Shown here: piece after piece, positions 21,001 through 36,409 of the stretch
Position numbering within the stretch: the first letter of the stretch is position 1
Layout of the letters: every line of letters starts with the position of its first letter
Assembly: GCF_000003815.2 (NCBI RefSeq)
Contig: NC_049980.1
Location: 32,150,767 to 32,214,766, forward strand
DNA length: 64,000 nucleotides
Source: Branchiostoma floridae
Taxonomy: Eukaryota > Chordata > Leptocardii > Amphioxiformes > Branchiostomatidae
Direction: 5' to 3'
Notes under the pieces: generated by a model
The model's input: the letters and a program-made list of their open reading frames with translations, nothing else
Told to the model about the DNA's origin: nothing
Databases searched by the model: none
Translations under genes and position numbers: made by a program

Positions 21001-23139
21001 GGCTCTGCACATCTTTTACGTGGCGTGTTTTCTGTACACGCTGTACAGGGAAGCAAAACTGATGAAGGAACAAGGGAAAAGGTACTGCCGACAACCGTGG
21101 AACCTTCTCGAGATTGTCAACATCCTGGTTTCTTTCATCGCCTTTACCGTGTTCGCCGTAGACTACATTACATCGAGGAATACCCTGGACAAGCTACTTC
21201 ATCATCATGATAATAACCTCAGTTTGTATGATTGATTTACTTTAGAGATGCATAATGTGGCATTACACATCCAGGTATATGCCGTGAGACAGCTTTTAGA
21301 AACCCCCGTCAATAGTTCATCTGGTTGGCAACGTAATTGAACATGGTCTTCATCAGTAAACAATTCATATTCTGCAGATGTTTCAATAACCTGTCTGTCA
21401 TGACAAGTTTACTTGCAGCAATAAAAACTAATAATAAGTAATCGGCAAAATAATTTAACATAGTCTTCTTCTGCACATAACACTCTTGTAGTCTCCTGCA
21501 GGTGTTTTAACATCTGTCATGACAAGTTCACTTACTGACTTAGCACCAGTAGAATGAGTTCATTATTCACTGATGAAGACAACCAATTCGTTAAAACGTC
21601 TGCTGATGAATACAATAGAGTTGTGTAAAATATTGTACATTTCATGATGCAATTTTTATCTTTTCTTACTCCCTTTCTTATAGAGTCGTCGAAGTACATC
21701 AGCTTCGATCTTGCTTTCTTCTGGAACCAGGTGTTTGTTTGGACAGTGGCCACCGTCGCCTTCATCAACATCTTAAAGTTTCTTCGCCTCCTTCGCTTCA
21801 ATCCGCTCATGTCCGTCTTGATGACGTCATTACGTCGTATGTTACCAGAGGTCGCGGGCTTTGCCGTCTACTTCACCTTCCTGTTTCTGTCATTCGTGCA
21901 GCTGGGCCACTTGGTGTTCGGGCTGAAAATACAGGTATGGGCGGTGAATTGTTTACTTTTTTTTTTAAAGAGTATTTTGCTATCATCAATAATACTGGGC
22001 ACTCTTCATCCCTTGCCAATCTATAAAATGCTCTATAGATCTAACTTTATTACCAGTATTAGGGAAGGTGCCTGGTAACGTAAGTTCACATTTACTTTGA
22101 AGATAATGCAATTTGAAACCACTGCCCTTCGAGGAATGGATATGAAAGCGTAATAATGTCATTAGCATTTAAAGTAGGACCAACTTTGCTTTGATTAATG
22201 GAGGACAGTCGCAAGACGCTTGATGTGTGAAATGCGTTTTACAGGAATACTCAACAATTGCCGCATCAGGAAAGAGTCTCTTCCTCTGTGCATTGGGGAG
22301 TTTCAATTTTGATGAAATTCTAAGCACCAGTAGAATCATCGGGCCCATGTTCCTGTACGCCTATCTGTGCATCGTCTTCATCATCATCATCAACATCCTG
22401 GTGGCCATCATCAATGACGCACTTGTGGTCATGAGAGGGTTCACGCCGCCTCAGGAACATAGGGAGATTCTGGACGAGTTGTGGAGGAGGCTTGCCAACT
22501 TCCTTGGCCTGACAAACTCTGCAAGTCGGGGTAAGATGACTTATTTATAGCTTTTGGCTCATTTCAGATGGCTGCAAATTTTATCCTTTATATTATAGAA
22601 AAAAGTAAAGAAATCCACTTCCCTTGCAACATCATAGAACACACACTTAACAGAAAAAGGGAGCCATTTCAGCCGTTTCAAAACAAGTCATTCACAGCAA
22701 GATAAATTCTTAAGTCAGCATTATGACTGGTTTAGTCAAATGTTACATTGTTGTTCATTGTCCGTTCGTCTTTTTACTGTTACTAGCAAGCAGCCCTCGG
22801 CAAGAATTTGAAATAAACCATGATAACCTAGTACAACCCCAAGGTGGTGAAGACGCTTATCCTAGTGTTTCCATATCATGAAATACACATTTGTACGTAA
22901 TGAAGACGTCGGTATCACTACATATAATCCCTACTTGTGATGTAACTGTGAAGTTGTGTACTTGTCTCCCCCTGACCCGATGACGATGTTTTACAGAGAG
23001 TGACATGCTGGCATCGGAAAGACTGAATGATCGTTTGACTCAACTGGACCTTCTAACATGGGCTATGAAGGAGAGACAGGTCTCAGAGAATGTGATACGG
23101 AGCTACTATCGGACTTTCAGATTACCTCTAAAAGTTTGA
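1..23139 (+). CDS. Polycystin-1-like receptor-channel, copy A (5' partial, 34 exons)
   Basis: Large membrane protein of the polycystin-1 (PKD1-like) family. The known family role is a lectin-bearing, GPS-containing receptor joined to a TRPP-type channel; the ligand here is unknown. Exons: 1-91, 2533-2922, 4001-4297, 5025-5302, 5792-5966, 6397-6660, 6861-7277, 7738-7843, 8188-8372, 8799-9062, 9486-9755, 10431-10496, 11145-11222, 11512-11667, 11902-11960, 12356-12478, 12639-12695, 13161-13292, 13575-13662, 13876-14009, 14407-14649, 15024-15489, 15713-15879, 16263-16493, 16762-16929, 17418-17575, 17913-18585, 18836-18992, 19354-19589, 19899-20073, 20517-21209, 21684-21934, 22245-22530, 22997-23139. 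All junctions keep phase, giving 7677 nt (2558 residues plus stop). Signal peptide and start lie upstream of the window. The C-type lectin recalls PKD1L2/PKD1L3, but orthology is not settled. One donor, after 21209, is non-canonical. The paralogue is the minus-strand gene at 36410-64000. Confidence 0.9.
92..795. other. Intron sequence, no gene seen
   Basis: AT-rich intron after the trefoil exon. A short inverted pair, gtccgtacgaggtccgtat near 500 and its complement near 693-712, brackets about 200 bp and may be a degenerate foldback element. No coding exon was recognised. Confidence 0.4.
796..985 (+). mobile_element. tRNA-derived SINE copy
   Basis: The head carries RNA polymerase III-like boxes: tggcgtaactggtagagcg (A box, about 806-824) and gagttcgatacccg (B box, about 849-862). 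It is followed by a body with ttgggaaaggcactttacac and an aligned tail. A related body recurs at about 48100-48230. Family name not assigned; end positions approximate. Confidence 0.6.
1713..2070 (+). mobile_element. 3' end of a non-LTR retrotransposon (5' truncated)
   Basis: This stretch aligns base by base, with scattered differences, to the end of the LINE copy at 28257-28615. It shares the last codons ([14 protein letters not shown]), the 3' UTR, cccatcatgggattt and the terminal aataaagatcattca. Coding potential is broken; only about 360 bp remain. It lies in copy A's first visible intron. Confidence 0.75.
2081..2152 (+). repeat. Inverted repeat arm, left of the C-type lectin exon
   Basis: The run from ttagtatggcatcatttt to agcgaaaacag pairs, inverted and about 80% matched by eye, with 3319-3390 on the other side of the C-type lectin exon. 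A further direct copy of the inner part lies at 2251-2312 (ttccgtgtcaaaat, gtaccttaaacaagcgaaaa). Confidence 0.6.
2533..2922 (+). CDS. Copy A exon: C-type lectin domain
   Basis: A complete C-type lectin-like domain of about 125 residues in one phase 1-1 exon. It opens with GCP and FNGACYKSF, holds the WLGLADTNGGGQW segment, an EPS tripeptide in place of the Ca-binding EPN, the WDEKDC segment in place of WND, and closes with GFICQ. Cysteine spacing fits the two conserved disulfides. Weakened EPN and WND motifs make Ca-dependent sugar binding uncertain. The acceptor is tcaacag and the donor A|GTATGT. The exon joins in frame to the FTP exon at 4001. No equivalent is visible in copy B, whose 5' end lies outside the window. 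Confidence 0.92.
3000..3200. repeat. Foldback (palindromic) element in intron
   Basis: An imperfect inverted repeat. Bases near 3043-3062 (acggtatcgttctggcatgt) are the reverse complement of bases near 3122-3144 (tgtacatgccagaacgatac). It lies just downstream of the C-type lectin exon and inside the larger inverted pair 2081/3390. Confidence 0.6.
3319..3390 (-). repeat. Inverted repeat arm, right of the C-type lectin exon
   Basis: The reverse complement (ctaagtgtatggcatcattt through gtaccttaaaatagcgaaaa) matches 2081-2152. The pair brackets about 1.2 kb that contains the whole C-type lectin exon. Confidence 0.6.
4001..4297 (+). CDS. Copy A exon: FTP (fucolectin-type) domain, C-terminal half
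   Basis: Encodes WWYVDLDRQWAIDRVTVV, NPFFIHIGDNGQNVSANPQC, VTIPCGGMRGRYVGIRL and a final LEVYPV. This is the second half of the F5/8-type FTP fold (fucolectin, tachylectin-4, pentraxin-1). The usual first half (NVAxGKP through AVDGN) is absent here and in copy B's equivalent exon. The previous exon splices directly to it in frame. Phase 1-1, 297 nt, same length as in copy B. Confidence 0.88.
4327..4490. mobile_element. Foldback MITE
   Basis: Near-perfect terminal inverted repeats: ttgtgggtaatatgtcaaag at the left and ctttgacatattacccacaa at the right, with cgcccctga/tcaggggc further in. It has no coding content. Absent from the matching intron of copy B, so it inserted after the duplication or was lost there. 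Confidence 0.7.
4491..5024. other. Intron, nothing recognised
   Basis: AT-rich intron sequence with no recognised element, ending in the polypyrimidine tract and acag acceptor of the next exon. Confidence 0.5.
5025..5966 (+). CDS. Copy A exons 5025-5302 and 5792-5966: galactose-binding-like (discoidin-related) module
   Basis: Two exons spliced in phase 0 encode about 150 residues: NIGGINVAALSSGGKC, a GIIDGQLTPRPG segment, WVQLKFDGYYFINRAKIAQS, then VTQVYYDN and FITAYPEG. The pattern (NVA start, DG loop, W-V-Q-L-F with inducible rearrangement of strands) looks like a divergent F5/8 type C jelly roll. This assignment is by pattern only. The intervening intron, 5303-5791, holds nothing recognisable. 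Copy B has both exons, the second interrupted by a sequencing gap. Confidence 0.75.
5967..6396. other. Intron, nothing recognised
   Basis: No element or exon recognised. Confidence 0.5.
6397..6660 (+). CDS. Copy A exon: PAN/apple domain
   Basis: One phase 1-1 exon. Its core LADCAIRCLEEPEFFCQSF followed by YEAGIRHCEMF has the cysteine pattern of PAN/apple domains (C..C...C..F.Y...C). This is an extracellular adhesion module. It is strongly conserved in copy B at 57915-58178. Confidence 0.85.
6861..7277 (+). CDS. Copy A exon: Cys-rich beta-trefoil (ricin-type lectin-like) module
   Basis: Encodes about 138 residues starting YFLFEWTPTPRMTCSCMY. The segment SQCLELLADNDVIATACS, then LSWRVLGREVCFDN and LVNCS, has the spaced C-L, V and C-S signature of a QxW-type beta-trefoil, though the QxW itself is not clear. 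The fold is therefore tentative. The acceptor is tttttttaag, and the donor follows GCCAGAGAAG. Copy B's exon has the same length (417 nt). Confidence 0.65.
7278..7737. repeat. Intron with a MITE fragment and TTGA-rich simple repeat
   Basis: About 7463-7560 (cagtgactgacgaaagatag, ctgaaacgtctga) resembles the right arm of the foldback element at 43079-43477. About 7570-7700 is degenerate ttga/attg simple sequence, with matching simple sequence in copy B's equivalent intron (about 56710-56780). Confidence 0.55.
7738..8372 (+). CDS. Copy A exons 7738-7843 and 8188-8372: fibronectin III-like module 1
   Basis: Spliced in phase 2, these give about 97 residues: VTRILIEEVGPGAVSAHW (strands A-B with the FN3 tryptophan), LTTSWNVSWDTDFF and SYLLEVYIMTPRSHIYLSYS. 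Copy B lacks the three codons Met-Pro-Glu before YACESR. Domain assignment rests on the W, Y-L-L-E-V and Y spacing. The intron 7844-8187 shows nothing else. Confidence 0.7.
8799..9062 (+). CDS. Copy A exon: fibronectin III domain 2
   Basis: IHNLTVSLVTDDGFYVTWNV, GYQVTYHLMG, LRGLLPGVEYNVSVRSI: a clear FN3 strand pattern (V-T-W, Y-x-V-x-Y, L-P-G-V-E-Y-x-V-x-V). One phase 1-1 exon. Several N-x-S/T sites suggest glycosylation. Confidence 0.88.
9099..9301. mobile_element. Foldback MITE
   Basis: Terminal inverted repeats tagcctccaaagcaggctct and, at the right, agagcccgctatggaggcta. There is an inner arm pair around ttctttttgtac/gtacaaaaagaaatgg. Not found in copy B's matching intron. Confidence 0.7.
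9486..9755 (+). CDS. Copy A exon: fibronectin III domain 3
   Basis: SPRDFRAVTVTDHSATLVW, then VTYLLELIPV, TADLTGLAPLQPYVARLYAV and VPWITG. Typical FN3 landmarks (W, Y-x-L-x-L, L-x-P-x-x-x-Y). Phase 1-1, 270 nt, same length as in copy B. Confidence 0.9.
9756..10430. other. Intron, partly conserved with copy B
   Basis: A short palindrome around cagtaccgcccc (about 9800) and the start of the intron are also present in copy B near 53055-53100. No other element was recognised. Confidence 0.5.
10431..11960 (+). CDS. Copy A exons 10431-10496, 11145-11222, 11512-11667, 11902-11960: Ser/Thr-rich and acidic linker
   Basis: Four small exons encode low-complexity sequence. A Ser/Thr segment (MSMDVSSTEST; then ARSTTENFVPDTTDDISE) is followed by an acidic segment (DSEVQSDDGFGGLGPP, SSGDEADG, DALDDVDASQ). 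It is probably an extended, possibly O-glycosylated spacer between the lectin/FN3 head and the GAIN-like stalk. The first three exons are phase 1-1; the fourth switches to phase 0. It diverges more from copy B than the folded domains do. Confidence 0.78.
10799..11105. repeat. Tetranucleotide microsatellite (TCAC)n/(TCAA)n
   Basis: About 300 bp of ctca/caat repeats in the intron between 10496 and 11145. The open frame through it (LTHSLTHS repeated) is a repeat artefact. Confidence 0.95.
11690..11745. repeat. (TA)n low-complexity tract
   Basis: Alternating tatata runs with palindromic actagtatat blocks, inside an intron. Confidence 0.8.
12356..14649 (+). CDS. Copy A exons 12356-12478, 12639-12695, 13161-13292, 13575-13662, 13876-14009, 14407-14649: GAIN-like stalk, helical part
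   Basis: Six exons encode a mostly helical region: ACKQAMETLQIASERLGTTT, LSDIAVLDNLNDDLARKV, DMLRAVGHIFDEALG, then a charged EEREDVRRREEEDRDQM and RRILNDMADRLRRELTPGG. Position and composition fit the helical A part of a GAIN/REJ-type region before a GPS. Exon 12639-12695 encodes 19 residues, against 26 in copy B. Introns are AT-rich; 14065-14275 is a MITE. Confidence 0.75.
14065..14275. mobile_element. MITE with tactgtaaatg termini
   Basis: Starts tactgtaaatgtatgtacgt and ends with the inverse, gcatttacagta. The interior is a series of cgcggt/accgcg palindromes. No coding content. Absent from the copy B counterpart intron. Confidence 0.75.
15024..15879 (+). CDS. Copy A exons 15024-15489 and 15713-15879: GAIN-like beta part
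   Basis: Encodes VISFHDNPFTWGNNSNIINS, VHHVFNISDVDDAFVVQVTA, WQDWKPTASHHGAPE, VMFFVSGKNHTGKYSVGVQ and SLEVLRLSCRYWAEDTESWL, ending at NGCR. The final C-R-Y-W and N-G-C lead into the GPS cysteines of the next exon, as in PKD1-family GAIN domains. Copy B has two extra codons in each exon. The first exon's acceptor is gtctccag. Confidence 0.85.
16263..16493 (+). CDS. Copy A exon: GPS motif and first transmembrane helix
   Basis: VCACNHMTAFGAGFV is a GPS autoproteolysis motif (C-x-C-N-H-x-T-x-F-G). The predicted cleavage would be between Met and Thr, where most family members have Leu. About 35 residues later comes VLATVLTTLALYFVGVIFL, the first membrane helix, followed by RRVDKTGMKK on the cytoplasmic side. 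Identical motif in copy B. Confidence 0.93.
16762..18100 (+). CDS. Copy A exons 16762-16929, 17418-17575 and start of 17913-18585: PLAT domain
   Basis: YYYKMTVYTSHGRGSGTKSN, VAFSLFGDKGSTCVRVF, VDIFLMAVEESLGDLHRLQI, WHDNQGGDDRAWKLDKVIV, then CNHWLSLDRGDGRINRILPA form a complete PLAT (lipoxygenase homology) domain. It lies in the first cytoplasmic loop, as in all PKD1-family proteins. Known PLAT domains bind lipid or protein partners. The two internal junctions are phase 0 and phase 2. Confidence 0.93.
16930..17417. other. Intron, nothing recognised
   Basis: No repeat family or exon recognised. Confidence 0.5.
17690..17850. repeat. Intron repeat shared with copy B
   Basis: aggtcaaacctgtacaagtg, gatcagctcaacactcaatg and ccctaggtgatcacctgtcc recur in inverse orientation at 41276-41410 in copy B's matching intron. 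Fragments of the same dispersed repeat (acctgtacaa) occur at 32140-32230 and 43815-43930. The insertion predates the A/B duplication. Confidence 0.65.
17913..19589 (+). CDS. Copy A exons 17913-18585, 18836-18992, 19354-19589: membrane helices 2 to 6
   Basis: After the PLAT end these exons encode hydrophobic segments around CIIYTTMIANAMWY, LYVSTMTSLCVLPVNVLLI, FVYVAWSVLILVCCVSAFF, ILAVSALVSFIC and VVSFFVFVVILLFVANG. This fits the PKD1-specific helices plus the first helix of the polycystin channel. Loops are basic (RCKEKPQPAKN; KSQKEQKKMEE). The exon 18836-18992 donor is AGAG|GTTTGC, a weak site conserved in B. Copy B has one extra codon in the third exon. Confidence 0.9.
19725..19845. repeat. 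(CA)n microsatellite, shared with copy B
   Basis: A-rich and cacaca runs. Copy B has the complementary gtgtgt tract at 39340-39400 in the matching intron, so the tract predates the duplication. Confidence 0.8.
19899..21209 (+). CDS. Copy A exons 19899-20073 and 20517-21209: polycystin extracellular (TOP) domain and next two helices
   Basis: DDYWSWARDVLVPGLFQEQH, IRVKSRSCGFHQRYTSLFLN, TYGSGGYVAG, DWIDRYTRAVVVEFTVYNAN and FFSTMSYTVEFLNMGG are hallmarks of the polycystin domain between S1 and S2. Helices follow around YIILALHIFYVACFLYTLYR and LEIVNILVSFIAFTVFAVDY. In copy B the exon ends CATCATG|GTAATA; here the same place reads CATCATG then AT, so the canonical donor is missing (see findings). 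An in-phase GTTTGT lies 12 nt downstream, after 21221. Confidence 0.92.
20110..20235 (-). mobile_element. Possible retrotransposon 3' tail fragment
   Basis: On the minus strand the segment ends with a gcaataaagttgac-type tail, as non-LTR elements often do. Too short to classify. Confidence 0.3.
21222..21683. repeat. Intron with two related direct blocks
   Basis: ctgtctgtcatgacaagttt near 21393 and aacatctgtcatgacaagtt near 21510 each follow a ctgca-agatgttt/ctgcaggtgttt block. This suggests a short internal duplication. No coding exon. Confidence 0.45.
21684..22530 (+). CDS. Copy A exons 21684-21934 and 22245-22530: channel core S4-S6 and pore
   Basis: VFVWTVATVAFINILKFLRL with following LRFNPLMSVLMTSLRRM is S4 and the S4-S5 linker with basic residues. 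FAVYFTFLFLSFVQLGHLVF is S5. The pore helix region is FLCALGSFNFDEIL, and S6 is LCIVFIIIINILVAIINDAL. The filter position that is Asp in PKD2-type channels (L-G-D) is Ser here (L-G-S), and Ile in copy B. Basis: alignment by eye to the polycystin family. Confidence 0.93.
22531..22996. other. Intron, nothing recognised
   Basis: No element recognised. Near the end, cccaaggtggtgaagacgct also has a match in copy B's intron near 36700. Confidence 0.5.
22997..23139 (+). CDS. Copy A last exon: short cytoplasmic tail and stop
   Basis: Encodes ESDMLASERLNDRLTQLDLL through RSYYRTFRLPLKV, then TGA at 23137-23139. The first stretch has a heptad-like leucine pattern and may be a short coiled coil. No EF hand of the PKD2 type. 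Copy B's tail ends differently (FELPRK). Confidence 0.92.
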
Positions 23140-24144: not shown

Positions 24145-24601
24145 GTAGGCGTACAATTTCCGCATCCTATTGTCAGTGGGTCAGGTGAAAAAAAACATCG
24201 TATGAATCATTTCTCATTAACACTGTCTATTACCTTACCTTAAGAGCTTTCATTGCACTTCAATGTCATTAGGACGGTATTCGCAACTTTTCGATGTGTG
24301 TAAAAAACAATCAAAATGTATAAAAACAACCAATTTTCCTCGAATTTTGTGTGGCGGTAGGGACTTTGTCCCAACTTACAAACATGGCAGAGGTTTATGT
24401 CTGTAGCCGCCGGTTGCCATGGCAACAAGCATTTTTCAAAATGGCGGATTTTTACCATGTGAAGGCCTTAGTCTCCTCCAATATAGACCATGTTTGGACT
24501 CATGTAACCCTTACAAATTAACACATATTTGATTGATTCTAACATATGTTATAACCCATGTACTAACAATTCGTACACTTTCAGAAAACTAGACAGGTGG
24601 T

Positions 24602-24728
24602 TTGCTAGCCGGGTGACCACGCCCCCCGTTGCCTAACACCAGCCAGGTGACCACGCCTTGTTGCCTAGCACCACCTGGGTGACCACGCCCCGTTGCCTAG
24701 CACCAGCCGGGTGACCACGCCCCTCCCC
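24602..24728 (-). repeat. 32-bp minisatellite spanning the sulfatase stop codon
   Basis: On the minus strand three full units and one partial unit of the form ggcgtggtcacccggctggt plus gctaggcaac. The first unit encodes the protein end (AWSPGWC) and the TAG stop; the rest lie in the 3' UTR. Confidence 0.85.
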
Positions 24729-24869
24729 AGTTCTTGGGGAAGGATTTAGGGTCCGGCGGTGGGTTGATGGCCGGCACCAGGGACTTCCTGTACTCCGCCA
24801 GCTTCGCCTGCATCTCCTTCAGCTTGTCCGGCATGGAGTCCGCCAGATTGTGGTGTTCTGTTGGGTCAT
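24697..24869 (-). CDS. ARSB: Sulfatase exon 14 (C-terminus)
   Basis: The acceptor ttttccag is followed by [20 protein letters not shown], then EYRKSLVP and [20 protein letters not shown] and Cys-TAG. D-P-x-E-x-x-(N/D)-L is a conserved late-sulfatase motif. The first part of this exon was amplified eight-fold in the upstream intron. Confidence 0.92.
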
Positions 24870-27800
24870 CTGGAAAAACACGAAATTAGGTTACCCCTCG
24901 GATAAAGGTGAACTGACTTTATGTGCAGCTTGTCCGGCATGGAGTCCGCCAGGTTGTGGTGTTCTGTGGGGTCATCTGGAGAAACACGAAAATAGGTTAC
25001 CCCGCAAATAAAGGTGAACTGACGTTAGGTGCAGCTTGTCCGGCATGGAGTCCGCCAGGTTGCGGTGTTCTGTTGGGTCATCTGGGGAAAACATGGATAT
25101 GGGTTACCCGGCAGATAAAGATGGACTAACGTTAGGCACAGTTTGTCCGGCATCTAGTCCGCTAGCTTGTGGTTCTCTGTGGGGTCGTCTGGAAAAACAC
25201 GAAAATAGGTTACCCCATGGATAAAGGTGAAGTGACGTCAGGTGGAGCTTGTCCGGCATGGAGTCCGCCAGGATGTGGTGATCTGTGGGGTCATTTGGAG
25301 ATAAAGTTAATAATAACAGATAAATAACGTTGGGCGCGGGTTGTCCGGCATGGAGTCCGCCAGGTTTTGGTGTTCTGTGGGATCGTCCAGAAAAAAATAC
25401 GGACATAGGTTACCCCGCGGATAAAGGTGAACTGACGTTAGGTGCAGCTTGTCTGAGATGGAGTCCGCCAGGTTGTAGTGCTCGGTGGGGTCGTCTGGTA
25501 AAAATACTGACAACGGATATAGGTTACCCCACGGATAAATGTGACGTTAGGTGCAGCTCGTCTGGCATGAAGTACGCCGGGTTGTGGTGCTCCGTGGTGA
25601 GTGAGTGAGTGAGTGAGTGAGTGAGTGAGTGAGTGAGTGAGTGAGTGAGTGAGTGAGTGAGTGAGTGAGTGAGTGAGTAAATCTCACCCTTCAGGTTGAA
25701 GAGCCATGTGCCGCTGGTGGGGTCCCCGCTGTCCAGCTGACTGTCCGTCAGGTTGTCGGGGTGGATCCATCCGTCAGGCTTCCCGGCAACGCCCTCGATC
25801 AGCTTGTAATCCCCAACCCTAAGACACAGGGTACATATTATTCTTTCCGGACCCAATGTCAATCTATTCATTCTACATGCTAAGCATCCTCCTACGCCCG
25901 GTCCCCAACGGCTAGCTAACTCAGCCTATTGGGGACCACAAGGAGTTTCGAGTGTCATGTCAAGATAACACCCATTCTTTGGCGTAATCGGGATACTATT
26001 TAAACTGCTAAATCATGGGGGCGTTGCTTACTGCTTGTACAGACTTTCATTCCAGAACACTTATTTCACTTTTAGTGCCACCATTTTAGTTGGATGTAAT
26101 GTGGTGAAATAAACTTGTTATTGTTTTATCATGTAGGAGGTAGCCTTGTTTGAATCATCCACAGTCACTTTGCTGAATAAAAACCGTTAAGAAACCAAGT
26201 ACAAAGCGCACATCCTAAGTTAATCATTATGTACAATCGCTTACAATAGAATGAGACCAAGAATACTAATATTTGAATTGAGAAAACAATTCATTCAATG
26301 TTAAAAAGTTTACTCGACTTTGCTGGATGACTCCCTGTAAAGTAGGGAACACTTCGTCAATGTTGTAGACAAACTTTGTATGCGGGATGGTTAGGGTAGC
26401 TATCATGAGTGCTAGGGGTTAGAGGTTAGAGTTCGTGGTTACTGAGCTCGTAGGTGTTAAGGATTATGGTTAGAAAACAAAAGATTTACCGGATGGCACC
26501 CTGTTTAGTAGGGAAGACGTCGTCAATGTTGTAGACAAACTCAGTGCGTGGAGAGGGCTGTCCAGACATGATTGTGTCCAACTGGCTCACTCCGTCCATA
26601 GCGTCATCTGCCAATCAGACACAGGCTTAGAAAACTGGAGTATTTCTAACATATAATCATTCATTCTTTTACCACGTAACATGTTACATGAACAATAAGT
26701 AACTTTAATAAGCTGGGGGAGGATTTATAATATATTTAAGGGGTCACCTTTAGTGCGAGGTGATCATTAGGGATTTCAACAAAGAGCATTGAATTTCAGA
26801 CTCTTCTTTATGTAGGCCAAATTACACTCCCTGCATTGCTTTATTTGTATCTAACCATCTGTTATACGCACCGGCCAGTTGGGCAGCGCTGACAGCATAT
26901 CTTTCATTTACGATTAATTAGCAGGGAAATGACATTCGAAGGGTGAAATGATGAGTACGTGGTAAAGGAAGATTGATTTTCTTTATTCTCTTGAAGAAGA
27001 CTGCATTTCTTTATTCTCTTGAAGAAGACTGCATTTCTTTATTCTCTTGAATTCGAAGAAGACTGATTTTCTTTATTCTCTTGAAGAAGACTGATTTTCT
27101 TTATTCTCTTGAAGAAGGCTGATTTTCTTTATTCTCGTAAGTGTATGCAGTTGGCCTGAGGTTGCACTTTCCCACGTACTCCACTGATAAAATGGAATGT
27201 TATGCACAAACCACCAGCCAGTCTATAGCTAAAATCCTACCTGCAGTACCTCCTGCAGCCGCCAGGATTGTTGGGAACCAGTCCACAGCATGAATCATCC
27301 TAAACAAGAGTTTAACAAAAAATCGTTGAGAAGCGTATACATGTAGCTTGATATTCCATTGCTCCCTCCCCTAGCCTGGGTACCATCCGGAAAGTAGTTC
27401 GCTACGGCGTTCATTATATTATAGAGAGACATATATCCTCGTACTGTTATTTAGGCGTAGTATTTACAGCGGGGTGTAAATTCAACACAGCCATGAAAAC
27501 CCTCCAAAAGAAGGCACTAAGGGCGCTATTTAGTATAAGAACAACTCTCGGAGGCAACAATGCTTCAGTACCACTGCAATGTAAATTATTTGACGCTTGT
27601 ATTGTGCCAATATTATTGTATGGTTCAGAAGTGTGGAGCAATGCTGGTTTAAACGACAATTCCCCACTAGAGCAAGCGCATTTGAAGTTTTGTAAAGTTA
27701 TCCTAGGTGTAAAAAGAAATGCCAGTAACCTCGCTACTAGAGCGGAGCTAGGAAGATTCCCTTTGTGGATCGAGGCTTTCAGCAGACTATTTTCTTATTA

Positions 27801-30800
27801 CCGTAGATTAACTAGAGAAGTACCGACAAATAGCCTACAATATGAAGCATTTCTTGTACAACAAAATCTACACGGACACAATGTACCATGTTGGCTGTCT
27901 AATGTAAGTAAGATTTTGGAGGAGTCAGGTTATGTATACCTATTGCTAAACCATGGTCGTAATGTATCCTTAATTCAGTCCGAAGTGAAGCAAAGACTGA
28001 AGGACATTTTCCTTCAAACCTTTTACTCAGGACTGAACTCCACTGGTAGAACGGAAAACCAAGGAAACAAACTAAGAACATATAGAAAAATCAAACATAC
28101 CTACGAAAGAGAACAGTACCTTAATATTCAGAATTTCAACCATCGCCGAGCCATGGCTAGATTAAGAATCAGTGATCATCCCCTACAAATTGAAGTGGGA
28201 AGATACAACCAGACTCCTCCGAATAATAGACTCTGTACACTTCGTAACTCCAACCGTATAGAAAATGAAGTCCATTTTATATTAGAGTGTTCTTTATACA
28301 ATGATGTACGCCACTCTTTTACCAATGCTCTCAATGTTGATACACAATGTAAAGAGTTACCAACGACAATCTGTTTGTACATATAATGACAACCACAGAC
28401 AACTTTGTACAACACAAACTCTGTGAGTTCGTATACACATGTTTTACGAAAAGGGAAGAGGCATATAAACGTTAGATATAGTGATAGCATTGCTTCAGAT
28501 GTATTGTTTACTCACTTGTAATACTACATGTAATAGTACTTAGTCTTTAGTATCCCATCATGGGATTTGCTGCATTTAGCCCACATGGGCAGGAATATGC
28601 AAATAAAGATCATTCATTATATACTATATACAGTCGCTTCTAGCTCTGACATTCATTATACACTATATACAGTCGCTTCTCTGTGTTTCCGTCTGGGAAC
28701 CCTGACCATCTTAACCTCTGGAATCGTCCAAATTTTGGACGCAGGCGCTGATTGGTCCCAACGTATGAGCGAATTGTGGAATGGATTCAAGCGCTCATTC
28801 GAAGAGGCCTTCAAAAACCGGACAGGCCCTCCGTCTGCTCGTGGGAGGCCTGTTGTCATCGAACAAGCGCTCTAGAACCCATTCCTACATTCGCTCATGG
28901 CGTTACCACCAAACGGTTTGAATGCGTAAGTCTCCAGACGGATAGCAGAAGCGAACATAGGAGCAAACTACTATCCGGATGGTACCCAGGCTATCCCTCC
29001 CCTTCACAACTATGAAAACATCAAGTTTGTCTGTCATCAAGAATTACAAAAAAAAAAAAAACATTTTTTTTTCATTTGCAGTGATATCTTACTACGTATA
29101 TGTCTTATACACTATAATGTTAAGTTCGACCACAAAATTAAACATATTTCACAGTAGAATGTCCTCTCCTTGTAACATATATTCAGACTTACTCGTTGTT
29201 GGTGTAGCCAGTTTTCTGCAGCATCTTGCCGTGCACGAAGGCCACGCCCCTGGTGCCCCCCTCCCACAGGGTCACCTTCCCGCCGCGCAGGGGGTAGTTG
29301 TTGCCACTGGCAATGATCCAACCGCCATTCTGGGGAATGATTCATATATACACTTTCAAATGTCCTACATCGATAAGCTGTAGGGCTGGCATCAATTAGG
29401 ATTTTACCGCTGGCAATGATCCAACCGCCGTTCTGGGGGAATAATTCATACTTTTTGAAATGTCCTAATTCTGTCAGCTGTTGGGCTGACATCAATTAGG
29501 ATTCTAACATGGTCAATATTGACCGAAGGGGGCCATATAGCTAGTTCATGATCTTTAGAAAATAAGACTATAGTATCTGTAGATGTATATACTGACAGGT
29601 TACGTGTTAAATTTACTCTTCTGCGTAAAAAAATCAAAATCCAATCGGAAACAAGATGACGTCGACACAACATTAAAATCAAACATGGCAGCCCCCATGG
29701 ACGTCAACGAAAACAGTATAGGTTTTGCAGACCCAAATCTGAAAAGAGCATATAGCTTACAGTGTCAATACTTTACAGGCAACTGGGTAGCATTTATAAA
29801 AAAAGACTGTTACGTCAGTGGTGAAGATCACGAGAGTGTTGTCCCATAATCCCGCGTTCTTCATCGCCATTGTAACGTTACCGACAGCCTCGTCCAACGC
29901 GCTCACCATTCCTGCAATCATTCATAGGAAGTCAATGAAGGTTTGAGATCCAGGTAATAAGACACACGATATAAAATTTACTCAAGCAACTCTCTTATAA
30001 ACTATTAGAAGTTTTAGATTAAAACCTAAACATGATATACACAACTGTATATTTTGTATCAGAGTACTAGTAATGCATTACTTACCGAGAAGTTTTCTCC
30101 TGTTTTCATTTTGTACGTTCATGTAGATGTTTTCGAACCGTTCGGGAACCTGCGAATGATCGGGAATCTCACATTCATTCAGTTCAAGGCATATTTTTTG
30201 GTCCCATTTTGGCACTAGGGACTAGGTGAGGTGAGGTGAGACACATTTCTCAAAACACATATGCGTAGTAGCTACAGAACTGGATTTCGAAAAAGCAGTT
30301 ACAACAGTAGTTAAATGTTTAAGTCCTTCCGCACCAGATGATGCATCGGGCGGCGCCTATCTTCGTTTTCATAGTCCCTAGGCCGCACAACTATATGTAC
30401 AATCACTGAAGCAGAGGGCTAGCGCATGTTTCCTCAAATGCGAATGCCAAGCAGCCGACTCGACTCGGGATTGAACTCACGACCTACCGAATGCAAGGCG
30501 AACAGTCTACACACTTGGCCACTGTACCTGTTACAGTAATATGATATGATTATATTTCAGTCCTGACCTCTAAAGGCTCATGCACGTTCTGGAAGGGCAG
30601 GTACAGGAACAGCGGTGTGTCCGCGGGGTGCTTCTCAATAATGTCCACCATCCGGTCAGTGAAGAAGTACTGCGGGGAAGAGCAATGGTTTTAGAGACCT
30701 GTTCTCTTATACATAACTGTACTGAACAAATTAAGGAGACTCTTTTTACACAACCATTGCTTTATTCTCACCAACATTTCGGTGACCGTCTGTCACCTTC

Positions 30801-33800
30801 TTCAGGGCAATTCTGACTGGTTCACATTGTACTACAGGACAGGTGTCGCTACTTCTTGTGTAAAAGGTGTCTCTTTATTCAGTGACGTACCAACCTGATG
30901 ATTAACCTATTCACGGGTGCATGGCTGTGCTGTCATCGATAATATTTTGTTGTTCTGTATGTAGCCTCGTAGTGCTATTTTCTATATTTAGTAGTTATTA
31001 CTGGTTGCCATGCATTGTATCTTGTGCGACTGTTGAGCAATTAAGTTCATTCATTCATATTATGCTTGTCTTGCTGATCATAGGTCACCAAAAACAAGAC
31101 TCAAAAGCAGCTTGAAGGTATGGCGCGTAAATACAGTTCCTGATTTCATTTAACTATTCAATAAACACCTGACTTTTGTACAGGTGTTGAAAGTTATAAA
31201 GAATTTTATTATCATAAGCACATTAATGGAGTTTCACTCACAGTGCCGTACTGGCCATTCTTTGTGTTCACGACTTCTTTGTCGTCTCGCAGGTCCAGTC
31301 CACCAGCTAAACAATGGAAATGAAATACGTTACAGACGGTCAAAGGATGTCATGATTATATTTGAACCACTCCAATAGGTAGTTCATCTAAGAGGCCAAC
31401 AAGGCGTTAATTTGAATTTGGCGACACAGAAATGGAATAGCATTTTGGCAAAGGGTTTTGTGGCGATATATCAGAAAAGTTTTAACTTTTTAACTTTATA
31501 AAGCGCAATTTCACCCGTACAGCAATGTTCCTACTTGAAAGCTTGTACTTGACGGTCACATATACGTCTTAGGTCGTCGTACAATTTTGATGTCGTAGGA
31601 TTTTCATAAGTTCTGTGACAAGAATCAAAGACAGCCTTTTAGGTAACAATACAGCTTACATTTTCACGACACGGGCACGACTATTGCGATTGTACGGCAA
31701 TCGCAGGCTGTTTCTGACCGCGCCCTACGGTATAGCACTTCTGGTTGCTTGCGTATGTTGAATCAAGGAACTCATTTCATTGTTTAAATGTATGTATTCC
31801 TGATCGGCTGAAGACGAGTAAATGAATGATTGTGTAATTGTATAGTAACGTTAGTTGTAAGATCTTTACCGACAACGTGAGTGTAGTAGTCCTCATCTGC
31901 ATTGTAGTAGCCGTAGAAGGAATCGAACCCGCGGTAGGTCGGCGTGTACTTCCAGTTGCAGAAGCCAAGATGCCACCTGGAACAGAGAGGAAGTATTTGT
32001 ATGAAAATATTTGAAACATATAACATGCACTAATCGCCATGTGCCTATGATGCTGGTGTATTGTGACCAGAGGCAGATTTGTCTGTAGCCTGAATGCCAG
32101 TCTGTTTCCAGGACCTACGCCAGTACGAAAATTCCCACAAAGGCACAGTCAAACCTGTACAACTGACCACAAACACCTCTGAGATTCTAAAGGGTCTCAC
32201 TCATGTGAGCTGTGGTAACATTTGATTTGGGTACGTTGACAATAAAGTAGAGGAGGTAGCTGGCTTTTGTAGGCCCTGCAGTTAGAAACAACCTTGCATC
32301 AAGCCTGTTTGTGGATTAGAAAGCTACAGATATAGAAACCTCACAACAACAGACTTACTTGCCAACCATGTGAGTGGCGTACCCCAAGTCCTTCAGCTTC
32401 TCGGGCAGGAAGGTAAAGTTGTACGGGATGCCCTGGGCCTGCTGGGGCAAGAACACCAGGTGCTGCAAAACAAAAGAAACAAAACGAAGTTCAAAGATCT
32501 CAGTGAAAAATTAAAAACTCGTATGTCTTGCTAACTGTCATTCATTAGTTATGCAAAATTGTTTTAATCATCATATAATTAAGGGTTAATGACCCTCCCC
32601 GACCCGAGGTGGATATGGTGTCATAACGCCTGGTCATTTGTTATAACCTCCGAATAAAACCACCGAGTGAGCGAGGCGGGTCATTAACGTTATTATCATA
32701 TAGCCTACCCAAACTTGCAAACTCCTGTATGACGCATAGATCCCTTGGTCACCTCTGACCTCTACTTCCTGTCACTTAGCGTTGGCAACCCTGACCTTAA
32801 CATGGTGTCGCTCTACGGTTACCGCTAGTAGCCTATGAAAATACTTCATGGAAAAAACGCAAACAGACATAAAACACATTTAACACAAAACGCTTCATAA
32901 TTTGGATATAAAATTCCCAACCTGAGACCCCGCATGGTACGGATAATACCCGGTCATGAAGGCAGTTCTGGACCTGCGGATGACAAGTAGAGAACATCAA
33001 TGTAGGGTCAATTTGTTGGTGGGCTTACTTAGAGACCGAAAGATCAACGATTTTAACCCTGACTACTGTCTCGCAGGCGACTTGCTCCTCACTAGTTAGA
33101 GACTTAGTAAGAGACATGAAAAGTTCAGTCTTCAACTAAAAATGATATTATACTTGCCCAGTGTAGAAAATATCTTTTTATATAACTATCAGCAGGTCAT
33201 TCGTCGTAGGTAGCCGTATGGGATTTGTCAACCGGTCGATGAATTGGCTGATTGATTAATTGGTTGATTCTGGTGGCGTAGCTCACGTGAGATTGATTGG
33301 TGATTGGTTGGTTGGTTGGCTGACTAACTGAACGATTGGTTGATGCCTACGGCGTACAGACGTAGTTAAAGTAAGAATGATTGATTGATTGAATGATTGA
33401 TATTGACGCCGTGCGGACGTGGTTGACGTAAGAATGATTTCTTTATCGAATTATTGATTTTTTGATTGACTTATTGATCGATTGATCGATTTATTGAAAC
33501 TGACGGGGTGCAGACGTAGTTGATTCAAGATTGATACCAACGGCGTTCTGACGTGGTTGACGTGAGAATGATTTATTTATTGAATTATTGATTCATTGAT
33601 TGATTTATACATCGATTGATCGATTTATTGAGTTATTGAAACTGACGGCGTGCAGACGTAGTTGATTTCAGATTGATTGATTGGTTTATACTAACGGTGT
33701 TCTGACGTGAGAATGATTTATTTATCGAATTATTGATTTATTGATTGATTCATTGATATATCGATCGATTGATCTATCTATTGATTGACTGATACTGACG

Positions 33801-35118
33801 GCGTGCAGACGTAGTTGACGTAAGACTGGTTGAGGATGACGCCTTCGTGAGCCAGCTTGTCCAGAACAGGTGTTTTGACGTCAGGATTGTGCCAGCCTAC
33901 GTCATTCCAGCCTGGACGCACAGGAGAGACAGGTGAGTCGTTTTGCAGGTAAGGAAGTACACGCGACAGAAACGGCTCTAGTTATGCTTAACAGCTCGTT
34001 ATCGGCAATATCAAATAATAAATATGTTACATAATGCTTGTAAGTAGCAAAAGTCCAAGAGAACACCTCGCCGAGCACATGAATACATGGCAAATAGACA
34101 GAAGACTAGAAAGCTTAGGGAACATAGAGCATGCTTGCTATTATATGCCTACCTAGCTTCTCCTTGAACCAGGATTACTTCCCAGGACAACATGAATAAA
34201 AATGCACTTTCTCGCCGGCTCCAGAGAATGTTTGAAGTAAATTCTAGTCGAAACCTCGTAAATGTTCTCCTACTTTCTACCGGTACATCACGAATGAGGT
34301 ACATCGGTGTATCATTACCCGTGAAGCTCACTGGGACCTTTGAAAGTACATAAGTGTGTGAAAGATTACAATGTTTGTTTAGCTCAGTCCTCAGCGGTAC
34401 AGGGATTCTGTATTTGTACAAGACCAAAGTCCGAAACATTTTGTAACAATGTAGCAAAAGCTCACATCTCCCCCTTAGACACACAAGCACACACAGACAC
34501 ACACACACACAGCGTACATTCCAATATCATAGATTTTTCTGATATTATGATCAAATTAGACTAATTTTGAACAGGTTTGCTGTACAAAACGGAAGTATAT
34601 CTGACCTGTTGAGAAGGGTGACCACGCCCCTTTTACGTGACCCCTACATTACTAAAAATTCCAGCAAGCATAAATGGAGTAAGGAATTTCCCAAGCAGCC
34701 TTCGGTACCCCTGCTTCTCATATTGAGTCAATCAGTCGAGCTTGATGCTCTGGCTTAGGGAGAAGAGTTGCTGCTACAGTGAGAGTTAGCCCATAACTGC
34801 TTCGTGGGGGCTTGCATTAAGCAAGCTCTATACAAAATAACTTATCATATTGATATTCTTGGTGTATCAAGATATTCTACAACAATTTTCATTTTAAACG
34901 GTAACATCTGTGACGGATTCCCATACCTACGTACGACTCCTTACTTTCTGGCAGACCAATGCATCAGGCTGCCAAGTACGGTCCTTACCTAGATCGTCGG
35001 CAACGATGAAGAGTATGTGTGGCTTGGTGGCGTTCTGACTTCCGTCTTGTGCGGACACCAGGCCCACCAGGGCCCCGGTAAGGAGCAGCAGTGGAACACG
35101 CAGCATCATGGTGCTCAT
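24697..35118 (-). CDS. ARSB: Arylsulfatase B-like sulfatase (complete, 14 exons)
   Basis: Lysosomal or secreted sulfatase of the ARSB/ARSI/ARSJ group; ARSB removes 4-sulfate from N-acetylgalactosamine in dermatan and chondroitin sulfate. Exons, minus strand in transcript order: 35118-34989, 33911-33800, 32973-32922, 32462-32359, 31976-31870, 31306-31242, 30669-30568, 30149-30086, 29911-29814, 29329-29193, 27299-27241, 26607-26490, 25818-25688, 24869-24697. The sum is 1452 nt (483 residues plus stop), a little shorter than vertebrate ARSB (about 530). Motifs: signal peptide [31 protein letters not shown] (metal-binding Asp pair); CTPSR, whose Cys becomes formylglycine; [28 protein letters not shown]. 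It lies between two inverted polycystin genes and shares the strand of copy B. ARSI/ARSJ cannot be excluded. Confidence 0.93.
24870..25600 (-). repeat. Tandem array of exon-14-derived units (about 106 bp each)
   Basis: Seven intronic copies plus the true exon. The shared gagtcc core sits at 24836 (true exon), 24942, 25048, 25155, 25261, 25353, 25461 and 25570 (last two cores partly changed at 25155 and 25570). Each unit holds the first about 50 nt of exon 14, a novel tail and intron with the acceptor. Copies at 25414-25494, 25001-25081 and 24895-24975 keep the acceptor AG, a stop-free 81-nt frame and a GTAACC donor. The 25155 copy has an in-frame TAG. The 25261 and 25353 copies have lost the acceptor AG. 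Confidence 0.9.
25596..25678. repeat. (GTGA)n microsatellite
   Basis: About 20 perfect gtga units between the exon-14 array and exon 13. It appears to have replaced the acceptor of the outermost array copy. Confidence 0.95.
25688..26607 (-). CDS. ARSB: Sulfatase exons 12 (26490-26607) and 13 (25688-25818)
   Basis: Exon 12: [20 protein letters not shown], then [20 protein letters not shown]. Exon 13: [20 protein letters not shown], then TWLFNLKG. G-x-A-I-R-x-G-D-Y-K-L-I is the conserved late core of ARSB-type sulfatases and includes the lysine that lies near the substrate in the family. Confidence 0.92.
25819..26489. other. Sulfatase intron 12 with a decayed exon copy
   Basis: Besides the exon 12 relic at 26325-26386, nothing is recognised except a small inverted pair (ggtccccaa, about 25897; ttggggacc, about 25929). 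Confidence 0.5.
26325..26386 (-). pseudogene. Decayed partial copy of sulfatase exon 12
   Basis: The minus strand reads [17 protein letters not shown], matching the end of exon 12 ([17 protein letters not shown]) about 166 bp away. The donor position reads CAGCAAAG instead of GTAAAT, and no acceptor in the right phase is seen, so it looks dead. Confidence 0.75.
26965..27137. repeat. Tandem repeat, about 29 bp unit
   Basis: Five to six copies of ttctttattctcttgaagaa followed by gactg. Intronic. Confidence 0.9.
27241..27299 (-). CDS. ARSB: Sulfatase exon 11
   Basis: Encodes [22 protein letters not shown]-x-x-D-W-x-P-T-I is the conserved sulfatase segment after the active-site lobe. The phase 2 entry completes the Glu codon from exon 10. 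Confidence 0.92.
27410..28620 (+). mobile_element. Non-LTR retrotransposon, 5'-truncated 3' part
   Basis: Inserted in sulfatase intron 10, antisense to the gene. The open frame, from about 27450 to the stop at 28386, encodes the C-terminal end of an ORF2: [16 protein letters not shown], then [35 protein letters not shown] and a terminal [15 protein letters not shown], typical of reverse-transcriptase-bearing LINEs. The catalytic RT part is missing. The 3' UTR ends aataaagatcattca, followed by a short duplicated cactatatacagtcgcttct. Confidence 0.85.
28621..29192. other. Sulfatase intron 10, remaining sequence
   Basis: Direct repeat of ctatatacagtcgcttct at 28624 and 28668, then unclassified sequence with A- and T-runs near 29050. 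A possible inverted pair of gcgctcattcgaa-type words lies near 28790. No exon recognised. Confidence 0.45.
29193..29329 (-). CDS. ARSB: Sulfatase exon 10
   Basis: Encodes [20 protein letters not shown], then [23 protein letters not shown] completes the metal-binding D-N pair begun in exon 9, and P-L-R-G-x-K carries the conserved basic residues. Confidence 0.93.
29330..29500 (-). repeat. Tandem duplication of the exon 10 5' edge
   Basis: 29400-29439 repeats the acceptor and first codons of exon 10 (minus strand reads NGGWIIASG), 103 bp from the true exon. The flanking blocks ggctggcatcaattaggatt and ggctgacatcaattaggatt mark the unit ends. Confidence 0.8.
29814..30669 (-). CDS. ARSB: Sulfatase exons 7 (30568-30669), 8 (30086-30149) and 9 (29814-29911)
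   Basis: Exon 7: [20 protein letters not shown] and [14 protein letters not shown], with the conserved Val-His-Glu-Pro. Exon 8: [20 protein letters not shown]. Exon 9: [20 protein letters not shown] and [12 protein letters not shown], ending at the metal-binding Asp. Confidence 0.93.
30240..30535 (-). mobile_element. tRNA-derived SINE copy (minus strand)
   Basis: The minus strand reads gtggccaagtgtgtagactg (A-box-like, 30511-30530) and ggtcgtgagttcaatcccga (B box, about 30464-30483). A non-tRNA body follows toward 30240. It lies in sulfatase intron 7. Confidence 0.6.
30920..31115. mobile_element. Possible retrotransposon 3' tail fragment
   Basis: ttgccatgcattgtatcttg through gagcaattaagttcattcat resembles 47175-47225 (ttgccatacattgtactatg). 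Shared tails suggest a dispersed element; class uncertain. Confidence 0.35.
31242..31976 (-). CDS. ARSB: Sulfatase exons 5 (31870-31976) and 6 (31242-31306)
   Basis: Exon 5: [20 protein letters not shown], then [16 protein letters not shown]. Lys and His of K-W-H are active-site residues in the family. Exon 6: [20 protein letters not shown]. The phase 2 and phase 1 junctions both restore frame. The intron between them, 31307-31869, shows no recognised element. Confidence 0.93.
32359..32973 (-). CDS. ARSB: Sulfatase exons 3 (32922-32973) and 4 (32359-32462)
   Basis: Exon 3 starts inside the active-site motif (S-R of CTPSR) and gives [16 protein letters not shown]. Exon 4: [20 protein letters not shown] and [16 protein letters not shown]-x-x-x-M-T-G and L-x-x-x-G-Y-x-T-x-x-x-G-K are conserved sulfatase features. 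Confidence 0.93.
33265..33800 (-). repeat. Tandem array of exon-2-edge copies mixed with (ATTG)n
   Basis: The 3' edge of sulfatase exon 2 (minus strand tacgtcaactacgtctgcac) recurs about every 35-110 bp through the first part of intron 2, at about 33646, 33540, 33505, 33408, 33350 and weaker places (33270, 33695), separated by attgattg simple sequence. The copies near 33646 and 33505 still read N-Y-V-C-T-P or similar, followed by GTCAGT. Confidence 0.8.
33800..33911 (-). CDS. ARSB: Sulfatase exon 2 (active-site exon)
   Basis: Encodes [20 protein letters not shown], then [15 protein letters not shown]. The cysteine is the one converted to formylglycine. The CTPSR motif is split by the intron: CC at the exon end joins G-TCC-AGA of exon 3. 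The donor is GTCAGT. Confidence 0.93.
33912..34988. other. Sulfatase intron 1
   Basis: Holds an (AC)n run at 34484-34512 and a short gggtgaccacgcccctt at about 34616 that resembles the 3' UTR minisatellite. No exon recognised. Confidence 0.5.
34989..35118 (-). CDS. ARSB: Sulfatase exon 1 (signal peptide, first metal ligands)
   Basis: Starts [19 protein letters not shown]; a second and third in-frame Met follow within five codons, so the exact start is open. After the likely signal peptide comes [13 protein letters not shown], the N-terminal sulfatase motif with the two Asp ligands. A good acceptor, ccgtttcag, lies upstream at 35141, consistent with a spliced 5' UTR. Confidence 0.93.
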
Positions 35119-35760: not shown

Positions 35761-36409
35761 TCAACTACCCGAAGGATTTTCCAAATGGGATAATAAATTG
35801 ACACATTGATGATAAAAAGCTGTCATGTTTTATCTCTGATTAAAATTTGTGATGAAACGGATATGTAACAATGTACGACAAAGTCGGGTTCCATTACTTT
35901 TTTGTGAGATGAGCCTTAAACGCTTGTTACTTTGACTTAGACGCTTGTTACAAAATCCACTCATACAGTCTAAACGTCTAGGTATAGCGTTACAAGATCT
36001 TGTACATATTATTCCACTATTATAAGAAACCTTTACAGTCAATACGCAACTGAAGGCCGAGAGTAAATTTACAAATTTCAAGCAGCGTCTCTCTTAATAG
36101 CTTTCATCTTTGAAAGAAATATTTTACTTGCTACAATATATACACGTAGATATTACTCTCATTAGTTGACATTGTATAGTCTCATCATGCCAGACAACAC
36201 CTGCAGTATTGTTAACGTCAGATCTGCCACAAGCAAAGGTCGGCATTACGCGTGCGAAAGCTTGCTACGTCATAACAACGCGCAATCTCTATCTCTACCA
36301 GACTTTATATTTTTAAAAATGGTTGATAGAATGATCTCAGCCTATGACATTATTCTTGAAGATCGCATCATTTCTAAAATCACATGGCATCATTTGACCA
36401 ATGACTACG
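35761..36409. other. Intergenic between copy B's stop and the sulfatase promoter
   Basis: Should hold copy B's 3' UTR. No clear AATAAA was found on the minus strand. No ORF or repeat recognised. Confidence 0.45.

What the first reader, a model, noticed from the sequence alone, without database searches (positions are those of the whole stretch)
24870..25600. Array of potential cassette exons copied from the last exon of a sulfatase gene
Seven intronic copies of the start of exon 14 follow one another at about 106 bp spacing. Three (25414-25494, 25001-25081, 24895-24975) each retain an AG acceptor, exactly 81 nt without stop, and a GTAACC donor. They enter in phase 1 and leave in phase 1, so each could be included without changing the frame, adding 27 residues that repeat DDPTEHxNLADS plus a new tail (HLTSVHLYP). 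Other copies have an in-frame stop or lost acceptor. This looks like new cassette exons arising by tandem duplication, caught with live and dead copies side by side. Splice use is inferred, not shown.
Basis: partly seen in the sequence, partly recalled or inferred. Interest (0 to 1): 0.78.

Follow-up and report, generated by a model that had tools for sequence, protein, structure and literature searches.

The report
Transposon-laced exon-edge repeats in amphioxus sulfatase
In this amphioxus sulfatase gene, the start of the last exon together with the tip of a small transposon has been copied in tandem inside the intron; this belongs to a known amphioxus oddity (exon-edge minisatellites called mirages) and is probably mostly silent rather than a set of new exons, but the transposon part is a new clue to how such repeats arise and where stray splice signals come from.

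Summary
Seven intronic copies of the start of exon 14 precede the true exon; three keep an AG, 81 open nt and GTAACC. The window is Branchiostoma floridae and the gene is a 14-exon arylsulfatase B-like gene. The public protein is exactly the direct exon 13-14 product. The array is best read as an amphioxus "mirage", a minisatellite spanning an exon-intron boundary.

New here: the non-exonic half of the unit, including the supposed peptide tail HLTSVHLYP and the GTAACC donor, is the terminal inverted repeat (TIR) of an abundant ~220-bp MITE (2,698 TIR matches in the genome). Candidate branch points of the true exon 14 also lie in it. A paralogue on another contig has an array with the same exon-TIR junction, so the array is old, or was exchanged between genes.

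Against new cassette exons: one "live" copy is 25 nt from exon 14, too short for an intron; survival of 3 of 7 copies needs no selection; the tail shows no third-position bias; frame is not kept in 3 of 6 paralogue units. For: the donors pair with U1 about as well as real ones, and the paralogue's public gene model splices once at a TIR donor. No RNA data could be examined.

The parts
25688..25818 (-). exon 13 of the arylsulfatase B-like gene, donor G|GTGAGA
   Evidence: 14-exon model gives 483 aa identical to the public protein
25597..25678 (-). (TCAC)20 tract just inside the exon 13 donor; borders the array and cuts its first copy
   Evidence: TRF, 100% matches; sequence
25495..25597 (-). 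copy c7: 5'-truncated exon head plus MITE TIR with a longer element remnant (..CCTATATCCGTTGT)
25414..25494 (-). copy c6: AG, 81 nt open, GTAACC; could be spliced to exon 14 (544-nt intron)
25295..25386 (-). copy c5: lost acceptor, decayed TIR, in-frame stop (dead)
25189..25294 (-). copy c4: open 81 nt and GTAACC but acceptor lost (AA)
25082..25188 (-). copy c3: AG and GT kept, in-frame TAG
25001..25081 (-). copy c2: AG, 81 nt open, GTAACC; 131-nt intron to exon 14 possible
24895..24975 (-). copy c1: AG, 81 nt open, GTAACC, but only 25 nt from the exon 14 acceptor
24881..24925 (-). MITE terminal inverted repeat segment of the unit next to exon 14 (the same segment recurs in c2, c3, c4, c6 and c7); supplies the GTAACC 'donor' and the -17 to -40 branch-point region of the true acceptor
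   Evidence: TIR scan of the array (L001), dispersed copies with inverted partner arms, 2698 genome matches to the TIR 32-mer, branch-point scan
24697..24869 (-). exon 14 (last coding exon, ends ..WSPGWC*)
26319..26375 (-). partial copy of the 3' end of exon 12 (donor-side duplication; GC where exon 12 has its donor GT)
   Evidence: 86% over 57 nt; similar duplications beside exon 12 in 3 of 4 close paralogues
29404..29517 (-). copy of the acceptor side of exon 10, about 100 bp upstream
   Evidence: 79% over 118 columns
33243..33833 (-). donor-side array of the end of exon 2, period about 142 bp
24607..24723 (-). 32-bp minisatellite spanning the stop codon of exon 14
   Evidence: sequence

Best explanation
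The array is an amphioxus 'mirage': a minisatellite whose unit straddles an intron-exon boundary. Shown: the unit is [first ~50 nt of exon 14] + [CACC + ~45 bp of the 5' terminal inverted repeat of a dispersed MITE] + [polypyrimidine-AG], decayed in some copies. Inferred: a MITE inserted in intron 13 just upstream of exon 14 in an ancestral sulfatase gene; most of it was lost; a tandem duplication ran from just outside the MITE end (CTG microhomology) to AAGCTG in exon 14; unequal exchange or slippage then added and homogenised units near exon 14 while distal units decayed. Transcripts most likely splice from exon 13 to the true exon 14, whose branch-point region is itself MITE TIR. The GTAACC 'donor' and in-frame cassettes are by-products of copying exon sequence beside a TIR, used at most as low-level cryptic sites.
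For: Genome: window = G000:C2:32150767-32214766, and the 483-aa product is identical to 'arylsulfatase B-like [Branchiostoma floridae]', whose title names no isoform. TIR: the array tail matches dispersed loci; of 21 TIR loci read, partly picked because both arms showed, 18 have an inverted partner arm 162-187 bp away; 17 of the 21 were aligned and show a ~220-bp element with matching ends; 1369 + 1329 matches to a TIR 32-mer with up to 2 mismatches, 0 for the reversed control. Age: paralogue C13:21.84M has units with the same AAGCTG|CACCTAACG junction; c1, c2, c4 and E14 group in a unit tree while c3, c5, c6 and c7 fall outside that group (weak support); this gene groups with B. lanceolatum P0002 apart from the paralogue (100/99). 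Array in 2 of 11 exon-14-like loci. Leftmost paralogue TIR is preceded by ..TCACTGCACC, giving the CTG microhomology. Identity to exon 14 is 94% in c1 and c2, 88% in c4, 78-83% in the other four. Head differences are third-position biased (17 of 28), tail ones not (4 of 16; Fisher p 0.03), as expected if heads record exon history. Mirages with normal splicing are described in PMC3087553 and PMC3902484 (passages read).
Against: No RNA evidence was available for this gene. The cassette donors are as strong as authentic ones; only 3.9% of 567 intronic GTs are as strong. The paralogue's public model uses a TIR donor. The head-tail contrast is one uncorrected test, and in synonymous share it is small (12 of 28 against 5 of 16). 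Ectopic gene conversion between the two genes could mimic shared ancestry. The unit tree has weak support at most nodes. The original insertion site and order of events are inferred from the paralogue's left edge only.
Confidence: 0.85

Rival explanations
1. Functional or nascent cassette exons: c2, c6 and perhaps c1 are included in mRNA and add 27 residues each.
For: AG, 81 nt open, phase 1-1 and GTAACC in 3 of 7 copies; U1 pairing -6.2 kcal/mol; public model of the paralogue P0012 splices unit b at GGG|GTTACC over a 154-nt intron and reads the neighbouring units as coding.
Against: 25-nt gap for c1 to exon 14 and c2 to c1; neutral retention probability is 0.45-0.81 for 4-15 substitutions (indels not modelled), so 3 of 7 is no excess; no third-position bias in the tail; paralogue exon-like lengths are 68, 80, 102, 102 (stop), 80, 102; among the 120 listed homologues only P0012 has more than one copy of the motif, and the 14 hits of a search with its repeat region are all among those 120 (database clustered at 90%, so near-identical isoforms could be hidden). 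P0012's model looks like avoidance of the stop in unit c.
Confidence: 0.1
2. Alternative acceptors, not cassettes: spliceosomes sometimes choose the acceptor of c1, c2, c3 or c6. For c1 and c2 the transcript reads through the TIR to a stop in the next unit, giving a sulfatase with an altered, shorter C-terminus; as it lies in the last exon, nonsense-mediated decay would not be expected (recalled rule).
For: c1 and c2 acceptors are nearly identical to the true one; the open frame from c1 ends ..RGNLISCFSR* at the TGA formed at exon 14's start, and that from c2 likewise at the start of c1.
Against: No transcript evidence; the published mirage genes favour the proper site; the C-terminus that would be lost is conserved among Branchiostoma homologues.
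Confidence: 0.2
3. The two arrays are alike because of gene conversion or ectopic exchange between the paralogues, not because the array is older than their split.
For: Same junction and similar tails in genes that are clearly diverged in protein; units within this gene show homogenisation.
Against: No long recent identical tract between the two introns: best stretches are 88% over 263 and 94% over 54 columns; the genes are on different contigs (C2, C13).
Confidence: 0.25
4. Assembly artefact.
For: Tandem arrays are error-prone; the 18.5-kb stretch read for the paralogue holds four runs of N, which may be gaps or withheld stretches.
Against: The seven copies differ from each other (64-92% identity), a separate locus has a related array, and 24301-26400 as printed has no N.
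Confidence: 0.02

Closest known systems
Amphioxus 'mirage' minisatellites (Adh3, globins BflGb6/BflGb9, PGBD5, TnC); passages of PMC3087553 and PMC3902484 read; the original Adh paper is not held
   Same: tandem repeats spanning exon-intron boundaries in Branchiostoma, on acceptor or donor side, many with AG/GT signals; recruitment as new exon/intron already proposed in the globin paper
   Different: here half of the unit is a MITE TIR, which brings the GT and the branch-point region, and the array is shared with a paralogue. The globin paper calls the mechanism unclear; it does not hold the term MITE, and its 3 uses of 'transpos' concern the beta-globin cluster
Tandem repeats and satellites seeded by transposon ends or MITEs (review PMC12628747, passages read)
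   Same: terminal inverted repeats or MITE parts become tandem repeat units
   Different: here the unit joins a MITE TIR to host coding sequence and a splice site
Tandem exon duplication / exonised transposons (general knowledge, recalled)
   Same: duplicated exon sequence with splice-like sites
   Different: only the first ~50 nt of the exon is copied; the rest is TIR; inclusion not shown

Membership tests
Amphioxus mirage minisatellite | tandem repeats whose unit spans an exon-intron boundary | tested here: met
   unit = polypyrimidine-AG + exon 14 head + intronic TIR, 7 copies
Amphioxus mirage minisatellite | occurs in a cephalochordate gene | tested here: met
   B. floridae arylsulfatase B-like, 100% identity
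Amphioxus mirage minisatellite | does not disturb regular splicing | tested here: inconclusive
   public protein P0001 is the direct junction and its title names no isoform; no reads examined; its cluster holds 2 sequences of which one was seen
Amphioxus mirage minisatellite | unit-number instability between haplotypes | not testable with these tools
   one assembly held
Cassette exon | usable acceptor and donor with flanking introns of workable length | tested here: inconclusive
   c2 to E14 131 nt and c6 to E14 544 nt possible; c1 to E14 25 nt not
Cassette exon | coding constraint on the inserted sequence | tested here: not met
   tail changes 7/5/4 at codon positions 1/2/3, 5 of 16 synonymous; few changes, so low power
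Cassette exon | inclusion in transcripts | not testable with these tools
   no RNA data; only annotation of a paralogue
MITE | short element, terminal inverted repeats, many dispersed copies | tested here: met
   ~220 bp, arms TAACGTTAGTTCACC.. / ..GGTGAACTAGCGTTA, 2698 TIR matches
MITE | target-site duplication | tested here: inconclusive
   ends TA..TA fit a TA duplication in the alignment; no empty sites compared

The most novel reading that the evidence does not exclude
A MITE whose terminal repeat carries a branch-point-like and donor-like GGGGTAACC acts as a portable splice kit: inserted next to an exon, it seeds tandem exon-head + TIR units (at least two unrelated loci: the sulfatase pair and C3:21.37M), supplies the branch point of the real exon, and in the C13 paralogue one TIR donor is already used, so that MITE-seeded mirages are a route from transposon to new coding exons in amphioxus.
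Probability: 0.15. Interest if true: 0.72.

Novelty: new variant of a known kind. Interest (0 to 1): 0.45.

Why it matters
The origin of mirages is called unclear in the globin paper (PMC3087553). Two separate arrays of one MITE family, in both of which the repeated unit contains the same TIR arm, give a testable seed and explain why such repeats carry ready-made splice-like signals. The sulfatase pair, with old, young, live and dead units in two paralogues, would let long-read RNA and multi-species DNA test the proposed step from mirage to exon. It also corrects the reading of this finding: most of the cassette-like features follow from copying, not selection.

Tried and rejected
Selection on the cassettes: a synonymous excess over the 81 nt of five copies (16 of 36 changes, expected 27%) was split into head and tail; the third-position bias is in the exon-derived head only, so it was not taken as proof of translation. 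Neutral retention simulation showed no excess of live copies. Enrichment of tandem repeats at exon edges: 4 of 10 local repeats in the window overlap a splice edge of this gene (P 0.019 by random placement window-wide), but inside the gene 4 of 5 is not unusual (P 0.22), so I do not claim that repeats seek exon edges. Exon 12 duplicate as a mutually exclusive exon: similar duplications are seen in this gene and in 3 of 4 close paralogues, but by eye none keeps acceptor, frame and donor together; rejected. Whether the exon 2 and exon 10 arrays also hold transposon pieces could not be asked: the genome search did not complete. Searches were seen as listings; of their papers I read passages only of PMC3087553, PMC3902484 and PMC12628747.

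Full report
1. What is there. The finding lies on the minus strand in intron 13 of a 14-exon gene (E1 35118-34989 to E14 24869-24697). Joining the exons gives 483 residues identical to the public protein 'arylsulfatase B-like [Branchiostoma floridae]' (P0001); its best solved relative is N-acetylgalactosamine-4-sulfatase 1fsu (E 3.7e-121) and Pfam gives Sulfatase. The genome search places the window at G000:C2:32150767-32214766 of a 513-Mb assembly; the contig length, 35,136,500, equals that listed for P0001.

2. What the unit is made of. The first ~50 nt are exon 14 (ATGACCC..GACAAGCTG). The rest was called a new tail. Searching the genome with the array gave 58 matches (40 of 874 candidates scored): beside this locus, the paralogue and a few exon hits, most are short hits confined to this tail, many in inverted pairs. 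I read 21 such loci, not a random sample, since many were picked because both arms showed; 18 have the second arm inverted 162-187 bp away, 3 (L005, L008, L024) do not. Aligning 17 of the 21 (L005, L008, L024 and L025 left out) shows a ~220-bp element with arms TAACGTTAGTTCACCTTTATCCGCGGGGTAACCTATATCCGTT / AACGGATAAAGG-TTACC..GGTGAACTAGCGTTA and unrelated flanks. A 32-mer of the 5' arm has 1369 + 1329 matches with up to two mismatches and none for the reversed control; some may be 3' arms, so this is not a count of elements. So the tail and its GTAACC are the terminal inverted repeat of an abundant MITE. The yUnAy/TRAY branch-point candidates found within 70 nt of the true exon 14 acceptor, at -17, -22, -34 and -40, lie in this TIR (branch-point use is inferred).

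3. How old. A paralogue on C13 (21.84 Mb) has five full units and one degraded unit, with the same AAGCTG|CACCTAACG junction, in long-head and short-head forms. Its leftmost TIR is preceded by ..ACATTCACTGCACC instead of exon sequence, which suggests the original flank and a CTG microhomology with AAGCTG. Among 11 exon-14-like loci, these two have the array; of the other nine, one (L036, C13:21.82M) has a TIR pair just downstream of its exon 14 but no exon-14 array. In a tree of 19 proteins (P0012 cut before its repeats) this gene groups with B. lanceolatum P0002 (100/99) apart from P0012, P0004 and P0010 (96/99). In a unit tree c1, c2, c4 and exon 14 cluster (0.92), whereas c3 falls with the degraded paralogue unit, c5 with another locus' exon 14, and c6 and c7 outside; other supports are mostly low. 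So the array is older than the species split, or was exchanged later.

4. Are the copies exons? For: cassette donors pair with U1 at -6.2 kcal/mol (13 authentic donors: -1.3 to -10.7, median -5.5; 3.9% of 567 intronic GTs are as strong), and c1/c2 acceptors are near copies of the true one. In the public paralogue protein P0012, residues 344-517 are reproduced exactly by units a + b up to GGG|GTTACC, a 154-nt intron over the stop-bearing unit c, then d + e + exon 14; whether RNA supports that model is unknown. Against: c1 to exon 14 and c2 to c1 leave 25 nt, while the smallest intron of the gene is 174 nt. With 4-15 substitutions (indels not modelled) a copy keeps AG, frame and GT with probability 0.81-0.45, so 3 of 7 is no excess. 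Differences among heads fall at third positions (17 of 28; all 4 shared variants are synonymous), those in tails do not (4 of 16; Fisher p 0.03; c5 left out of the tail because it is rearranged). The synonymous share differs less (12 of 28 against 5 of 16). That pattern fits heads being records of the selected exon and tails evolving freely, but the numbers are small. Exon-like lengths in the paralogue are 68, 80, 102, 102 with stop, 80 and 102. Of the 120 listed homologues, one, P0012, has more than one copy of the motif, 86 have one and 33 none by the pattern used. A second search with the repeat region of P0012 found 14 proteins, all among those 120; P0010 carries repeated exon 13 ends but one exon 14 motif. 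The database is clustered at 90% identity, so a near-identical isoform could be hidden; P0001's cluster has 2 members, and P0004 is titled 'isoform X2', whose X1 I did not see.

5. Known kind. [quoted passage not shown] The globin paper describes them in BflGb6 and BflGb9 and cites Adh3; it says RT-PCR suggests regular splicing, calls the mechanism unclear, and proposes that a unit may be recruited as an exon (PMC3087553, passages read). PGBD5 and TnC are further cases (PMC3902484, passage read). That transposon ends can become tandem repeats is known in general (PMC12628747, passages read). I found no paper linking mirages to MITEs in searches (listings), within a library that lacks most subscription papers.

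6. More of the same. In this gene, 4 of 26 splice edges carry duplications: exon 2 donor side, exon 10 acceptor side, exon 12 donor side, exon 14 acceptor side, and a 32-bp minisatellite spans the stop codon. Inside the gene that is not more than random placement gives. A second array with the same MITE, at C3:21.37M, has five units of the end of a reading frame with its stop codon plus the TIR, and a whole MITE at the downstream end. Among the roughly 100 exact TIR places listed (first part of the genome only), this is the one tight direct cluster I saw; a looser one (C3:3.37M, 1.2-2.8 kb apart) showed single TIRs. Two arrays are too few to prove that the MITE causes the duplication.

7. Verdict. 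Most likely mainly silent in splicing; the MITE component is the new and testable part.

Noticed in passing
L046 (G000:C3:21369500-21374500): Second, unrelated array with the same MITE TIR: five units of the end of a reading frame with stop codon (..ASQQVEEQSGSVRQSALEETQV*) plus TIR, period 118-135, with a complete MITE at the downstream end.
   Followed up: partly
26319-26375 and paralogues (C13:21.84M, L029, L030): The 3' end of exon 12 is duplicated just downstream in this gene and in 3 of 4 close paralogues (not in L028); by eye, the copies in L029 and L030 are most like their own exon 12, which suggests recurrent duplication or conversion.
   Followed up: partly
29404-29517: Acceptor-side copy of exon 10 with its own AG and a GT; no such repeat was seen in the C13 paralogue.
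   Followed up: partly
33243-33833: Donor-side array of the end of exon 2, unit about 142 bp with tetranucleotide-like filler.
   Followed up: partly
24607-24723: A 32-bp minisatellite starts in the coding end of exon 14 and runs through the stop codon into the 3' region.
   Followed up: no
L022, C13:21.84M, intron 13: The paralogue also has a donor-side array of exon 13 ends separated by CCCTAA-like repeats; parts of it appear in the public proteins P0010 and P0012.
   Followed up: partly
L036 (around G000:C13:21823239-21823421): A TIR pair of the same MITE (arm starts about 290 bp apart) lies just downstream of exon 14 of a more distant sulfatase paralogue, without an exon-14 array.
   Followed up: no
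27352-28386 (+), intron 10: A 344-aa stop-free frame on the opposite strand that resembles, to my eye, a non-LTR retrotransposon reading frame; no Pfam hit.
   Followed up: no
21600-23100 (+) and 36400-39700 (-): Polycystin-like channel genes flank the sulfatase on both sides and look by eye like paralogues; the polycystin domain was tested only for 38071-38847.
   Followed up: no
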